This document shows positions 21,657 to 27,848 of a stretch of DNA of 34,148 bases, piece after piece (the first letter of the stretch is position 1; each line of letters begins with the position of its first letter). A program made the position numbers and the translations under genes. The DNA is from Candidatus Gastranaerophilales bacterium (lineage in GTDB: Bacteria; Cyanobacteriota; Vampirovibrionia; Gastranaerophilales; Gastranaerophilaceae): the NCBI GenBank assembly GCA_944323035.1, contig CALUQY010000020.1, positions 1 through 34,148 on the forward strand, written 5' to 3'. A model generated the notes under the pieces. That model had not been told where the DNA came from and did no database searches. It saw nothing but the letters and a program-made list of their open reading frames with translations.

Positions 21657-21660
21657 ATTT

Positions 21661-21834
21661 TTACTTGAATAAATCAGTTATTCTGAATTTATTCTTAGCC
21701 TTTTCCTTATTGAAATCCAACAACATCTTTCTTATAGGCGAGGTAACTTTAGAAGAAAGCTCCGGCTTTTCAGGTGTTTCTTTCTTTACACCTGCAACCA
21801 GTTTCAAATTCTTTTCATCAGAATTTTCTCTCAT
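21661..21834 (-). CDS. Unknown 57-aa small protein
   Basis: A small Lys/Glu-rich protein ending with a basic segment (FNKEKAKNKFRITDLFK). The start is placed at the ATG at 21832-21834, because AGAGAGG lies directly before it at 21840-21846. An in-frame ATG six codons earlier lacks a good site. No signal peptide or membrane span is present. It is the first gene of the unit leading to prmC and is divergent from the 1942-aa gene. Its coding status is supported by the ribosome site and the tight spacing to the next gene. Confidence 0.65.
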   Translation of the reverse strand: MRENSDEKNLKLVAGVKKETPEKPELSSKVTSPIRKMLLDFNKEKAKNKFRITDLFK

Positions 21835-21986
21835 AATTACCTCTCTATACATTTATTAAAAAATATTTTACAAAAAATTTGCCCTTTCATGTTCGGTTAT
21901 TAAGTTTTGTAACGAAACATCCCAAAAAACTAAAGATTACACGGGAAATTCCGACATCAAAAGTAAGAGTAAAGGAAAGTCAAGTT

Positions 21987-24900
21987 ATGTCTATTGAAGC
22001 AAACATGAAAGCAGTTATAGAAAGTAGAAGCGGAAACTTCTACAGCTTTCTTGATGGTTTTGATACAAGTGATGCAATTTATACAGACGATCCTACAAGC
22101 CCGTATTACGGCTACAGCGTCAGCGAAATTTTTGCTGCAATAAACGACGGGGAAACAGTTCCGCCAACGATTATAGACTGGGCTTCTGAAAATAGTGAAG
22201 CTAAATTTGAAAAACCGGAAGATCCGGACTTTGATTTTATTAAGGAATACGATGCAGACGGTAACCCAGTCTTTACAGATCCGGCCAAAGCCAAAGCTTA
22301 TAATTTAAGAATCGCTCATTTTAATGCGGTAAGACAAACAATTGATAGCAATTCAAATATTTACTATACAGAAGACGAAAGCAGCGAGTTCTTCGGCTAC
22401 ACCTACGATGAAATCATCGGTATGGCTAACAACGGCGTTACTATCCCGGATGAAATCCTTGACTGGGCATATTCTATGGCTGATGCCAACGCAGTTGAAA
22501 TAACAACCGAAACCGAAGGCGCTAGCGCTCACGACCTTTACATTTCCTTAAAAAATAATCCTTTACTCAACATCAAAACTATTACAAAAATTTTCGTCAA
22601 CAAATGCCAGGATCAAACTCAGGAAATCGAAGCTTATTTAGACGAAATTAATCCTATTGAAAAAGAGATGGAAGCAGCAAGCGTTGACGCTGAAACAGAA
22701 AAAGAAAAGGCGCTCAACAATATCAAATCCTTAGTTAAAGAATGGAAAGATCTTCAAGCAAAATTTGCAAGCGGAGAAGAACTGAATGATGCTGATCAAC
22801 AAAGATTTGAAGAATTGAAAGGGCTGTTCGGTGAAGAAGACGAAAAATATCAAGATACTATTGACAATACCACCAGAAATTTCACCAACACACGTTCAAA
22901 ACTTTCTATGGTAACCGGCAAAGCAGATACCGCATTTGATTTCGGTTCCGAAACAATACTGATAGCACAAGAACTCGCTGAATTTGAAAAAACTTCCAAA
23001 AACAGAAGCGTATTCGGCGGTCTGGTAGGTTCCGGTATTGCCGGAGTCCTCGGCTCCGTTGAGCTATCAGGAAGTAAAAAATTCTCAGAAACTGCCCACA
23101 CCGTCGGGATGAATACACAATACTTTGCTGATGATGTAAATACTACCATTCAGGAAGTTCAATTGTTAATGCAGGATACTGCCGATACTGCAGGCTTTGA
23201 TCTGGAAGATCCTTCCTATACAGTTGAACCATTAACCGGTGATGAAGGTATTGTAGATCCGACCTTCACCGTTAATACTAAATCAAAACAAAGTACAACA
23301 CCAACAGAAACATCATCATTAGATAATGACGCAACTACCGTTGAACCGCCGCAAGCTGAAACAGAAGCAGCACCTGCCGAAACTAATCCGGAAAATATAG
23401 ACGGTTCCGGAGCTGCGGAAACTTCAGAAGAAGGCGCAACTGACGCAACAGAAGAAGGCGAACAAACTGATGAAGAAATGATGTCTGACGGTGAAACAAG
23501 CCTTGAAGAAGTTGATGCCAAAACTCTTGCGCTGCCAAAACTTAAACGCTTAATTCAGGATGAAGGCGTTGACTCCGAAAAGAAAGGCAAAGACGCGTTA
23601 AAACTCGTTGAACAACTGAAAGCACAATCAACAGTAGTTGAAGAAAAAGAAGAACAAGTTCAGGAAGATACAACAGAAGTAAAAGAAGCCTCAGAAGCAG
23701 AACCGGAAGAAGGTACACAAGGTACTGACAACGAAGGTGAAATGGAAGAAGCTCAAACCACAGCTGCCGCAAGTCAGGGTGATTTAGAAAACGCTACAGA
23801 AGAAGAATCCTTAACCGTTCAAGGCCTAAGAGAAACCTTCCAGGCTTCAACAAAGGCTAACAAAAAATACTCTAAAGATGTTGACTATGCTAATAAAGAA
23901 ATGAACGAAAGCATGTATTCCGGTGCCTTCACAATTGCAGGCGGCGGCTACATGACCGGCGTTGGTATTTATAACGTTGTTCAGGGTACAGCTCTTTTGA
24001 GTGCTGCCGGCTGGTGGAACCCGTTCATTACAGCTATTGCAACTTATATGATTAATATGGGTACAATGGAAATCGGGCTTGGCTCCACTATGATTGCAAG
24101 CGGTACTGCATTAACTGTTTCCGCAACCGAAGGTATGGAAATAAACGAAGAAGCCGGCGAAAAAATCGGTGTTTCCGGTGAAGATATCTCCACCGCAACA
24201 GAAAGTCTTGATCAGATTGAACAAGAACAAAGCCAGGGCGTTGAAGGCGAAGAAAATAAAACTGAAAACGCTGATGAAGAAGACAATACCGAAGAACCGG
24301 ATGAAGATGACGCCCGTAATAAAGATCAGTCTTTATTAGGTAAAATGTATACCGGCAACGAACAACTTCCGCCGCAAAGGAGTTTAGTCACCGCTGACGG
24401 CAAAAAGTCTTCCGCAACCGGCAAAGAAAACGTAACAAAACTTACAACTCTTGAACGTCAAATACCATCTCTTATAGAAGAAACAATTGAAATGGAACAG
24501 GCAAAACAAGAACAGGCAGCACAAAGCGTTGATCCGGAATCAACCGGCAGTGCAGCTACTGTTCAAGATCCTGCAGAAGTCTATGAAGCTTACCGTCAAG
24601 ACTACAACGCTGACCTTGCAACAAATAAAACATACCAAAAGGATATTAAAGAAACCAACGAAAACGCAAAACTTAATCTCGGCTACGCTGCAACAGGTAC
24701 AGCAGCCGGTACGGCAAGAACTGCTCTGGGCGCAAGTGAAATCGCAATGGGTACAATTCTTGCCGCTCAATGGTGGAACCCTGCGGCAATGATGCTGGGC
24801 ATTGCATTAATCAAAAAAGGTACCGAAGATACAGCTCTCGGTACTGAAATGATTACTGTCGGTCTTGCATTAACCGTAAACAGCTCAGTAACACTTGCTG

Positions 24901-27815
24901 CCGGCGCTATTGCCTCTGCTCAGGTTTCCGAATCCAACGACAAAACAAATGAATCCCTCGAAACCGTTGACACTATTGAAGATGAAATTAATACTGCCGT
25001 TCAGGAACAACTCGCTGCTAACGGCGAACAAGATTTAAGCGGTATGTCCGTTATTGAACTGCTTACTTTAATCATTAATAACGGTATTCAATCTTCTGTT
25101 CTCGGTACAGAAAACACTGAAATTCTTGAAACTTTAAAATCACAACTTCCGCAATTGGTAGAAAACGCCGGAGCTGCTGAATCTGCAGATGTAGAAGAAA
25201 CATCTGAAACAACACAAGATACTGTTGCGGAACCGGAAACAGATGCTAACAGTCAGCAAGATGAAGAAGGCGAAAAGGATTCTCCTCTCGCGCAATACAA
25301 AAACGACTTCAAAACTGACCTTGCAACAAATGAAAGATATTCAACAGAAATCAAACAGGCAAGAGGTATGTCACCGATTTTGAAAACCTCTTTCTTCCTT
25401 GGCGCACCTGTTGAAAAAGCAAGTGCTAAAATTGAAACTTCCAACGAACAAACCAATACTGCTTTAGATGAAGTTGAAAAAATGGAAACTGAAATTGAAA
25501 AAGCAGAAGAAGAAAAACGTCAGGCTCAAGAAGAAGCCCAAACCACAGGAGAAACAACTACCACAAATTCGGGAAATAACGGTGAAAACGAAGAAGATGA
25601 AGAAGTTACACCAGAAAATGCAGAAGATGCTGTTGCCAGCGCTGAAGACGAAGAAAACAATGCACAACAAGAAAATGAAAAAAATGCCAATATAGAAAAG
25701 AAAACTAAAAAAGAAATTAAAAAGCAGGAAAAACAAACAAAAAAATTAGATAAAGAAGTAAAACTTAATGCTAAAGAAGCAACTACCGCAGGACAAGAAG
25801 CTGCTGTTAATCAACAGTTAGGAGAAGAAGAAAGTCAAAATGCAAACACTGATGAAGCTCAAAGCGCAGCAGATAAAACGACGACAGAAGCAAGTGAAGC
25901 TGAAACTATTTCCGAAGAAGTTACAGCTTTGACAGATGAAGTTCAAAAAATGACTGAAGAAACAAAAAGCGAAGCCGAAGCTGCAACAGCTGAAAACCAG
26001 GGTATTGTTGTTGAAATGAATGCAATTAACCTGGAGTTAGAACAAGATCAAACCCAAATGAAAAGCCTTGAAACACAACTTCAACAAGAAAGTAAAAAAG
26101 ACTCCTCAGGTTCACAAAGCTCACAACAACCTCAACAAACAAAACCGGAACCAACGGTTAAACCTAAAAAATCGGCAAAAGTTGAACAACCAAAAGAAGA
26201 AAAACCAAAAGCAGAAGATAAACCAGTTGAAAAACCGGAATCAACTCCGGCAGCACCTGCTAAAACCCGTGCAGTTACTCAACAATCCACAGAAGATTCC
26301 GAACCAACTGTTCAGAATGCTCCCGAAGGTTCAGATAGAATCGAATACGCTTCCGACAAAGAAAAACAACCTGATTTCGTAGGATTTGTCGCTCAAAGTG
26401 ACAGCCTTGCTTCCGGCAGCGTATTCGTAAACTCTAAAGCAAAAGCTGCTCCGGCGCAAAATGAGAATAATAATGGCAAAACTAATCAAAATAGCAGTAT
26501 TTTAGCTCTTAGAAACAAACAAAAACAGAGTGCTAAAAAAACATCTGCGAAAAAAGAAATGACGCAAACAATCGCAAATGAGGCTGCACAACAATCTCAA
26601 ATCGTCGCGGCGAAAAGGACTACACCTAAAGCATTTGATATTGATTCCATGAACGGCGGAGCTGACAAAACAAAAACTATCAGAACCAGCATGGAAGCTC
26701 TCAGAGCTGCTGCATTCAATAAACAAGCAAAATTAAGTGCAATGGCAATCCGTGCAAACAACAATGTTATGGCTAATATTCAAAAAGAAGCTCAAGCACA
26801 AGCTGAAGCCGCAAGAAAAGAGCGTTTAGCAAGAGAAAAACAAGAACGTATCGCACAAATTAAACAGTATGCAGGTATTGTTCAAACTGTCGGTGGTCTT
26901 ACTTCCACGGCCGGTATGATTACAGAAAAAATCGGTACAGCTCAAATAACTGCAGGTACGGCTCAGATAACTGCAGGTACCACTCAAGTTACGACAGGTA
27001 CTATGCAAGTTGCGACAGGTACCATGCAAGTTACCTCAGGTACAACAATGGTTACCACAGGTGCGGCTCAGACGACTGCAGGCACGGCTCAAGTAGCAGC
27101 CGGTACGGCACAGATTACCTCCGGAACCACAATGACAACAACAGGTACAACGCTCATTGCGACCGGTACTCCGTTATTATCCAACCCGTTTACTGCCGCA
27201 GCCGGAGCTGCAATGATCGCAAACGGTTCTGCATTGGTATCAAGCGGTAGTTCATTAGTCGCGACAGGTACTGCAATGGTTACTACAGGTACTATGCAAA
27301 TATCACTTGGTAGTATTAATAATGCTACCGGTACAGCTCAAATCGCTGCCGGTACAACTCAAATTGGTACAGGTAATGCTCAAATCGCTGCCGGCACCGC
27401 ACAAATTGGAGCTGGAACCGCTCAAGTAACCAGCGGTACAGCCTTAACTGCTACGGGCGTTACCATTCAAACAATCGGTACTATAGTAACCGCCGCAGGT
27501 GCTGCAACAAGCGCCGGAGCCGACATTGCTAACGGCAATATCCTTGGCGGTATAGCATCAATAATCGGAGCTGCAGCATCCGTCGTCGGCGTATCAACAC
27601 AGGTTTCGCAATTAGGCAATGCTGCTATACAAGCTGGTTCGCAAGGTGTTGCACTCGCGGGTCAATTAACTACCTCCGGTACAAACCAAAATAACAGCAA
27701 CAACAATCAAGATCAAAAGAAAAAGAAAAAATTTAAAGAAGATGAAAGAACTCAAGGCATCATCGAAAAAACGGTGAACAAAAAGCAAAAAGTTCAAAAC
27801 AGATTCAGTAAATAA
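21987..27815 (+). CDS. 1942-aa glycine-heptad repeat protein, unknown function
   Basis: No family was recognised. The ATG at 21987 (AAAGGAAAG upstream) is preferred to an in-frame TTG 36 codons earlier, which has no ribosome site. Two copies of a motif (about 23-66 and 122-168: Y-GY-x-EI, then NxGxTxPxxIxDWA) are followed by helical coiled coils. Two hydrophobic units (about 628-748 and 882-1004) each have a flank YxxDI, Gly-spaced heptads around a WWNP centre, and a closing TNESLxxVDxIExE helix. A third unit (1116-1170) keeps the flanks but has lost the core. Glu-rich linkers, a Lys/Glu coiled coil (about 1226-1372), a Pro/Lys stretch, a basic helix (about 1595-1635), about 25 heptads of the GTAQITA type (1650-1842) and a basic tail complete it. 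It has no signal peptide. It probably self-assembles or associates with membrane from inside the cell; this is inference. Confidence 0.85.
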   Translation: MSIEANMKAVIESRSGNFYSFLDGFDTSDAIYTDDPTSPYYGYSVSEIFAAINDGETVPPTIIDWASENSEAKFEKPEDPDFDFIKEYDADGNPVFTDPAKAKAYNLRIAHFNAVRQTIDSNSNIYYTEDESSEFFGYTYDEIIGMANNGVTIPDEILDWAYSMADANAVEITTETEGASAHDLYISLKNNPLLNIKTITKIFVNKCQDQTQEIEAYLDEINPIEKEMEAASVDAETEKEKALNNIKSLVKEWKDLQAKFASGEELNDADQQRFEELKGLFGEEDEKYQDTIDNTTRNFTNTRSKLSMVTGKADTAFDFGSETILIAQELAEFEKTSKNRSVFGGLVGSGIAGVLGSVELSGSKKFSETAHTVGMNTQYFADDVNTTIQEVQLLMQDTADTAGFDLEDPSYTVEPLTGDEGIVDPTFTVNTKSKQSTTPTETSSLDNDATTVEPPQAETEAAPAETNPENIDGSGAAETSEEGATDATEEGEQTDEEMMSDGETSLEEVDAKTLALPKLKRLIQDEGVDSEKKGKDALKLVEQLKAQSTVVEEKEEQVQEDTTEVKEASEAEPEEGTQGTDNEGEMEEAQTTAAASQGDLENATEEESLTVQGLRETFQASTKANKKYSKDVDYANKEMNESMYSGAFTIAGGGYMTGVGIYNVVQGTALLSAAGWWNPFITAIATYMINMGTMEIGLGSTMIASGTALTVSATEGMEINEEAGEKIGVSGEDISTATESLDQIEQEQSQGVEGEENKTENADEEDNTEEPDEDDARNKDQSLLGKMYTGNEQLPPQRSLVTADGKKSSATGKENVTKLTTLERQIPSLIEETIEMEQAKQEQAAQSVDPESTGSAATVQDPAEVYEAYRQDYNADLATNKTYQKDIKETNENAKLNLGYAATGTAAGTARTALGASEIAMGTILAAQWWNPAAMMLGIALIKKGTEDTALGTEMITVGLALTVNSSVTLAAGAIASAQVSESNDKTNESLETVDTIEDEINTAVQEQLAANGEQDLSGMSVIELLTLIINNGIQSSVLGTENTEILETLKSQLPQLVENAGAAESADVEETSETTQDTVAEPETDANSQQDEEGEKDSPLAQYKNDFKTDLATNERYSTEIKQARGMSPILKTSFFLGAPVEKASAKIETSNEQTNTALDEVEKMETEIEKAEEEKRQAQEEAQTTGETTTTNSGNNGENEEDEEVTPENAEDAVASAEDEENNAQQENEKNANIEKKTKKEIKKQEKQTKKLDKEVKLNAKEATTAGQEAAVNQQLGEEESQNANTDEAQSAADKTTTEASEAETISEEVTALTDEVQKMTEETKSEAEAATAENQGIVVEMNAINLELEQDQTQMKSLETQLQQESKKDSSGSQSSQQPQQTKPEPTVKPKKSAKVEQPKEEKPKAEDKPVEKPESTPAAPAKTRAVTQQSTEDSEPTVQNAPEGSDRIEYASDKEKQPDFVGFVAQSDSLASGSVFVNSKAKAAPAQNENNNGKTNQNSSILALRNKQKQSAKKTSAKKEMTQTIANEAAQQSQIVAAKRTTPKAFDIDSMNGGADKTKTIRTSMEALRAAAFNKQAKLSAMAIRANNNVMANIQKEAQAQAEAARKERLAREKQERIAQIKQYAGIVQTVGGLTSTAGMITEKIGTAQITAGTAQITAGTTQVTTGTMQVATGTMQVTSGTTMVTTGAAQTTAGTAQVAAGTAQITSGTTMTTTGTTLIATGTPLLSNPFTAAAGAAMIANGSALVSSGSSLVATGTAMVTTGTMQISLGSINNATGTAQIAAGTTQIGTGNAQIAAGTAQIGAGTAQVTSGTALTATGVTIQTIGTIVTAAGAATSAGADIANGNILGGIASIIGAAASVVGVSTQVSQLGNAAIQAGSQGVALAGQLTTSGTNQNNSNNNQDQKKKKKFKEDERTQGIIEKTVNKKQKVQNRFSK
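26934..27500 (+). repeat. 21-bp degenerate tandem repeats encoding Gly heptads
   Basis: Units begin GGTAC and encode G-T-x-Q/M-I/V-x-x. About 11 run consecutively to 27166. A longer non-heptad insert (LLSNPFTAAA) interrupts them, and about 14 more follow. Third codon positions have drifted while the residues stay conserved, which points to selection on the protein rather than recent DNA amplification. Confidence 0.85.
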
Positions 27816-27825
27816 CACAAAAGAT

Positions 27826-27848
27826 GGCGCGGATATTAAATCCGCGCC
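27826..27848. terminator. Hairpin between convergent genes
   Basis: GGCGCGGA (27826-27833) pairs perfectly with TCCGCGCC (27841-27848) around a seven-base loop, between the 1942-aa gene and mtnA. T runs are weak on both sides (TCTTC on plus, ATCTTTTG on minus). It may serve both genes. Confidence 0.6.

What the first reader, a model, noticed from the sequence alone, without database searches (positions are those of the whole stretch)
21987..27815. Giant cytoplasmic protein built on glycine heptads with no recognised family
The largest gene here encodes 1942 residues with no signal peptide. Its C-terminal domain has about 25 seven-residue units (G-T-x-Q/M-I/V-x-x), joined to long acidic linkers and a Lys/Glu coiled coil. 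Regular Gly plus small and hydrophobic residues every seven positions could form a helical glycine-zipper array, a lipid-coating amphipathic surface or a stacked beta structure. The YhgE/Pip proteins carry vaguely similar heptads but differ in architecture. It stands alone with its own leader and terminator, so it may be an independent structural system.
Basis: partly seen in the sequence, partly recalled or inferred. Interest (0 to 1): 0.85.

Follow-up and report, generated by a model that had tools for sequence, protein, structure and literature searches.

The report
Giant glycine-heptad hairpin protein of Gastranaerophilales
A 1942-residue protein of a gut cyanobacterial relative carries three hairpin-like segments with a glycine every seven residues, belongs to an undescribed family found almost only in its bacterial family, and may be a membrane-engaging protein exported by a flagellum-type secretion apparatus, although the export step is inferred and not shown.

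Summary
In detail: 21987-27815 (+) encodes 1942 residues, and residues 1636-1844 hold 29 heptads that all start with Gly (14 before and 15 after an SNPF turn). No Pfam, NCBIfam, PHROG or PDB family matches it. It is not an isolated oddity. A conserved N-terminal domain (113-400) defines a family of about 440-2050 residues in a set of Gastranaerophilaceae genera. The heptad array is an enlarged copy of a short hairpin that occurs twice more in the protein (641-720, 896-985) and in most relatives. Three results indicate an antiparallel helical hairpin: symmetry around the turn, paired +7/+7 (or +7/+6) length changes in both arms, and a distant homologue whose Gly heptads run in register into ordinary Lys/Leu heptads. 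AlphaFold2 gave no usable model. The hairpin also occurs in a second protein class, present in 10 of 10 family genomes tested, which lies 17-25 kb from flagellar-type type III export genes in three genera. The window's genome has that export apparatus but no flagellin. My best mechanism is a translocator-like, membrane-engaging protein exported by this apparatus (about 0.4); export is inferred only. The main rival is an inner scaffold.

The parts
21987..27815 (+). gene for the 1942-aa giant protein
   Evidence: open frame; relatives at the same chromosomal place in four other genomes of the genus
21657..21986 (+). intergenic leader with a purine-rich AAAGGAAAG just before the ATG
   Evidence: sequence read; no promoter match above chance
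22080..22199 (+). first, degenerate copy of the N-terminal motif (YGYSVSEIFAAINDGETVPPTIIDWA)
   Evidence: profile A2 match, E 1.4e-4
22359..22499 (+). conserved N-terminal motif (YTYDEIIGMANNGVTIPDEILDWA)
   Evidence: profile A2 match, E 6.8e-25; invariant positions across 21 relatives
22368..23171 (+). family-defining N-terminal helical domain
   Evidence: alignment A1 and class-wide profile search
23004..23072 (+). Gly-rich hydrophobic stretch inside the N-domain (residues 340-362)
   Evidence: hydropathy peak 1.57, 2.04 in L003; Gly-rich hydrophobic run at the same place in a paralogue
23895..24143 (+). hairpin 1 (HD1), turn WWNPF
   Evidence: A5 profile E 1.5e-26
24690..24902 (+). hairpin 2 (HD2), turn WWNPA
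   Evidence: A5 profile E 4.5e-11
26892..27518 (+). hairpin 3 (HD3), the heptad array: 14 heptads, NPF turn at 27183-27191, 15 heptads
27513..27671 (+). hydrophobic C-terminal module (ADIANGNILGGIASIIG...)
   Evidence: aligned with relatives; hydropathy peak 1.98
27672..27812 (+). Asn/Gln linker and basic C-terminal tail
   Evidence: basic tails in most relatives; 28% K+R
27826..27848 (.). palindromic terminator-like stem between two convergent genes

Best explanation
The protein is a modular, mostly helical protein: a conserved N-terminal domain, acidic disordered linkers, coiled coils and three Gly-heptad hairpins. In each hairpin two helices pack antiparallel around a (W/S)NP(F/A) turn, with Gly at one core position of each heptad allowing close packing. 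In this genus the last hairpin grew from about 4-5 to 14-16 heptads per arm. The apolar tip (Leu/Met) was kept and a Gln/Thr-rich stalk was added. I propose that it works like the hydrophobic translocator of a type III secretion system: exported without a cleaved signal by the flagellum-derived export apparatus of this flagellin-less organism, after which the hairpin tips engage a membrane. Shown by sequence: family, hairpin homology, symmetry, paired arm growth, presence of the export apparatus. Inferred: helical fold, export, membrane insertion.
For: Hairpin: arm lengths (arm 1, arm 2) are (103,113) in four genomes, (110,119) in L002 and (110,120) in L036, so a heptad was gained in both arms together. 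Gly and turn positions are shared by 15 hairpins of two sizes. Helix: in homologue L126 the same Gly heptads around the same SNPFTAAAGAAL turn run in register into Lys/Leu heptads on both sides. Tip versus stalk: Gln at heptad position 4 is 4/40 in the four heptads nearest the turn and 59/100 further out (the rows are related, so the p value overstates). Export link: hairpins of a second class of about 450-720 aa are homologous (hhalign 98.1%); that class is in 10/10 family genomes tested and lies 17-25 kb from the FlhA-type gene in 13 genomes of three genera (coordinates; genes read). The window's genome encodes FlhA, FlhB, FliO/P/Q/R, FliE, FliF, FliH and a FliN-like protein but no flagellin. 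All hairpin hits at E<=1e-5 that I could check lie in genomes with FlhA. Known type III translocators have helical hairpins and transmembrane segments of intermediate hydrophobicity (PMC9993115). There is 1 Cys against about 30 expected.
Against: AlphaFold2 gave pLDDT 43 and 36, and drew low-confidence strands through the array. The array is too polar to be a transmembrane segment by crude sums. In the window's genome neither hairpin gene is linked to export genes on the assembled contigs. Linkage in three related genera may be inherited gene order, since housekeeping genes lie between. Co-occurrence with FlhA is confounded by descent. No chaperone or needle gene was identified. Short members L041 and L044 have no hairpin. 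No sequence match to any known translocator.
Confidence: 0.4

Rival explanations
1. An internal scaffold: the protein stays in the cell, the hairpins and hydrophobic segments bind the inner membrane or each other, the acidic linkers act as spacers and the basic tail binds lipid or nucleic acid.
For: No signal peptide by eye; long acidic linkers and basic tail; not linked to export genes in its own genome; hairpins optional in the family.
Against: Hairpin shared with a second class that lies near export genes in three genera; strong Cys depletion.
Confidence: 0.33
2. The heptad array is a beta roll like the grass ice-recrystallisation inhibitor or YadA-type heads, with seven residues per half coil.
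For: Weak Pfam match to LbR_Ice_bind (E 0.0015), weak PDB matches to a trimeric adhesin and an ice-recrystallisation protein (E 0.013 and 0.059); high Thr/Val content; low-confidence strands in the AlphaFold2 model.
Against: Matches below the Pfam cut-off; hydrophobic residue and Gly are 3 apart, not 2 as in the beta rolls (spacing of those recalled, not tested); symmetric arms and paired +7/+7 (or +7/+6) changes are not expected in a continuous solenoid; the homologue continues as leucine heptads.
Confidence: 0.1
3. The array is an unstructured spacer without a fixed fold.
For: Low pLDDT throughout; Gly/Thr/Ala composition.
Against: 29 of 29 Gly kept in register, invariant Gly and turn across genera, paired arm lengths.
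Confidence: 0.08

Closest known systems
Hydrophobic translocators of type III secretion systems (SctE type; described in PMC9993115)
   Same: coiled coils, helical hairpin segments of intermediate hydrophobicity, no cleaved signal peptide, genome with a type III export gate
   Different: no detectable sequence similarity, much larger, several hairpins, Gly-heptad packing, not encoded beside the export gate in this genome, no injectisome needle or chaperone identified
YhgE/Pip and other xxxLxxG heptad proteins (from memory)
   Same: heptad with Gly and a hydrophobic residue three positions before it
   Different: no NCBIfam match; different architecture; heptads here form a symmetric hairpin around a Pro turn
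Grass ice-recrystallisation inhibitor beta roll (LbR_Ice_bind, PF21300)
   Same: seven-residue repeats with Gly and Val/Ile; weak profile match
   Different: below cut-off; spacing between hydrophobic residue and Gly differs; homologue continues into leucine heptads

Membership tests
Type III hydrophobic translocator (SctE-like) | sequence match to a known translocator family | tested here: not met
   Pfam, NCBIfam and PDB searches of the window protein, relatives and the second class gave none
Type III hydrophobic translocator (SctE-like) | type III export apparatus in the same genome | tested here: met
   FlhA, FlhB, FliO/P/Q/R, FliE, FliF, FliH, FliN-like; flagellar type, below the SctV equivalog cut-off
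Type III hydrophobic translocator (SctE-like) | hydrophobic helical hairpin with coiled coils | tested here: inconclusive
   sequence symmetry and homology support it; AlphaFold2 did not resolve it
Type III hydrophobic translocator (SctE-like) | secreted through the apparatus and inserted in a target membrane | not testable with these tools
   needs experiment
YhgE/Pip heptad proteins | match to the family models | tested here: not met
   no NCBIfam hit at E<=1
LbR_Ice_bind beta roll | score above the Pfam cut-off | tested here: not met
   19.1 bits against a cut-off of 30
Family defined here (Gastranaerophilaceae N-domain family) | N-domain with YxYxEIIxMxxNGVxIPxEVLxWA followed by a long helical region | tested here: met
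   118 of 289 genomes of the class, nearly all in one family

The most novel reading that the evidence does not exclude
Flagellin-less Gastranaerophilaceae keep a flagellum-derived type III secretion apparatus that exports a lineage-specific set of Gly-heptad hairpin proteins, the short second class and this giant class, which act as a new kind of translocon towards host, protist or bacterial membranes.
Probability: 0.27. Interest if true: 0.85.

Novelty: new variant of a known kind. Interest (0 to 1): 0.52.

Why it matters
Non-photosynthetic cyanobacterial relatives are common in animal guts, yet how they contact other cells is unknown. A conserved export apparatus without flagellin, together with conserved hairpin proteins, would give these supposedly non-motile commensals a means of contact. 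Independently, the protein is a natural case of a hairpin enlarged by paired heptad gain, useful for studying how coiled-coil hairpins evolve.

Tried and rejected
Phage origin: no relative in IMG/VR or in phage records, and no PHROG match. YhgE/Pip membership: no NCBIfam match. Beta roll: weak sub-threshold matches only. AlphaFold2 of the C-terminal 395 and the N-terminal 1010 residues with three-row alignments: confidence too low to use, so no fold search was run. An export leader shared with the second class was looked for: that leader matched only second-class-sized proteins, one per genome in nine of ten genomes and two in the tenth (the extra match weak, E 0.008), not the giant. Papers: no report found of a type III system in Gastranaerophilales in the held library.

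Full report
What is there. The window lies in a 1.94 Mb genome. The nearest named relatives are Candidatus Gastranaerophilus phascolarctosicola and another Gastranaerophilales MAG. The reported gene is real: ATG 21987 to stop 27815, 1942 residues. It stands alone between a divergent ORF and a convergent gene, with a stem-loop after it.

The heptad array. Residues 1636-1844 contain no charged residue except E1647 and K1648 near the start. Every one of 29 heptads begins with Gly (p about 3e-32). The array is two arms, 14 heptads before and 15 after the sequence LLSNPFT. The DNA units are only about 70-85% alike, so the register is held at protein level and is not a fresh DNA duplication.

The same hairpin elsewhere. 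Two shorter segments of the protein, at about 641-720 and 896-985, have the same pattern around WWNPF and WWNPA. Relatives in other genera carry one or two such hairpins with about four or five Gly heptads per arm. In an alignment of 15 hairpins, three Gly before and three after the turn, and the Pro, are invariant. The long array is therefore best read as an enlarged copy of an older short hairpin.

Paired arm growth. From a conserved anchor to the turn, and from the turn to a second anchor, arm lengths are 103 and 113 in four genomes, 110 and 119 in L002, and 110 and 120 in L036. The L002 protein is closer to the window's (92% identical in the best segment) than the unchanged L003 and L037 are, and L036 is more distant, so the gains were probably separate. 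A heptad gained in one arm comes with one in the other, which is what two antiparallel arms that pair would require.

Helix or strand. AlphaFold2 was of no use (mean pLDDT 43 and 36; low-confidence strands drawn in the array). The best sequence evidence is the homologue L126 from another family of the class. Around the same SNPFTAAAGAAL turn its Gly heptads run in register into heptads with Leu or Met at position 4 and Ala, Val or Leu at position 1, with Lys and Glu outside. That is an ordinary coiled coil, with Gly at one core position near the tip. Position 4 of the window array is Leu or Met near the turn and mostly Gln further out (4/40 against 59/100 Gln over five related genomes). I read this as an apolar tip on a polar stalk. 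This remains an inference about structure.

The family. An N-terminal domain (residues 113-400) with the motif YxYxEIIxMxxNGVxIPxEVLxWA defines the family. A profile finds it in 118 of 289 genomes of the class, nearly all in one family. Most have one main copy, plus in some genera a roughly 400-residue paralogue with a Gly-rich hydrophobic hairpin. Lengths range from about 444 to 2045 residues. In many genera outside the window's own the gene sits divergent from an exonuclease-like and a GlpT-like gene (names by eye), which gives no functional hint. No Pfam, NCBIfam, PHROG or PDB family matches significantly.

A second hairpin class. The hairpin profile also finds proteins of about 450-720 residues in many family genomes. 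Their leader (typically MTxNGSIFNAP) is found in ten of ten family genomes tested, including the window's own. They have coiled coils around one hairpin. Profile comparison supports homology of the hairpins (98.1%), with the caution that both are Gly-rich repeats. In 13 genomes of three genera the gene lies 17-25 kb from the FlhA-type gene (coordinates). In the loci read, housekeeping genes lie between, together with several small genes of unknown function. This could be function or shared gene order.

The export apparatus. The window's genome has FliE, FliF, FliH, an FlhA-type protein, FlhB, FliO, FliP, FliQ, FliR and a FliN-like protein, but no flagellin. The FlhA-type protein scores below the curated cut-offs of both FlhA and SctV models. 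In the class, a form scoring about 720-735 bits is present in nearly every Gastranaerophilaceae genome sampled, and some genera have an 850-880-bit form. Strong N-domain carriers listed have only the lower-scoring form. Published work noted incomplete flagellar gene sets and inferred that koala-gut members are non-motile (PMC5877343). I found no report of a type III system in this group in the held library.

Mechanism. I propose a translocator-like protein: exported through this apparatus and engaging a membrane with its hairpin tips. Known translocators have helical hairpins, transmembrane segments less hydrophobic than inner-membrane ones and an amphipathic C-terminal helix (PMC9993115). The window protein shows moderate hydrophobic peaks, a basic tail and almost no Cys (1 against about 30). 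None of this proves export. The main rival is an internal scaffold. Membership in the translocator family is not claimed, because no sequence match exists.

Limits. Co-occurrence with FlhA is confounded by descent. Neighbouring gene order in related genera is not independent. The crude hydrophobicity sums do not predict a firm transmembrane helix in the long arms. No chaperone or needle gene was identified.

Noticed in passing
L105:13519-19803, L151:5087-8734, L152:8401-9459 (same genome): A flagellar-type export apparatus (FliE, FliF, FliH, FlhA, FlhB, FliO/P/Q/R, FliN-like) without flagellin; the FlhA-type protein falls below both FlhA and SctV cut-offs.
   Followed up: partly
L107:9500-10969: A 490-residue protein that matches only the C-terminal, cytosolic half of FlhA.
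   Followed up: no
L144:7922-9805 (-) and loci L122, L124, L128, L131, L146-L148: A second class of hairpin proteins with the N-terminal motif MTxNGSIFNAP, often next to a fabI-like gene.
   Followed up: partly
L122:15586-18203, L124:13275-16536: Conserved small genes of unknown function (MGMAASQARYLGLTARK..., MSYKNDSYLVIANKFGSASG..., a 90- and a 110-residue protein) upstream of fliE; possible exported axial parts.
   Followed up: no
L105, L108, L109: Many scattered genes with near-identical pilin-like N-termini (AEILLSLTIIGVVAAITLPSLTGNINERTW...) and differing C-termini.
   Followed up: no
L108:968-2494, L107:13210-14454: Enzyme-like proteins without an evident signal peptide but with a short N-terminal leader containing an NxxFxG- or SFSS-like motif.
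   Followed up: no
L002:12795-14021: In the closest relative the array has drifted (AGVATTTAGVSTQAAG..., FPT turn, some Glu) yet keeps the paired arm lengths.
   Followed up: partly
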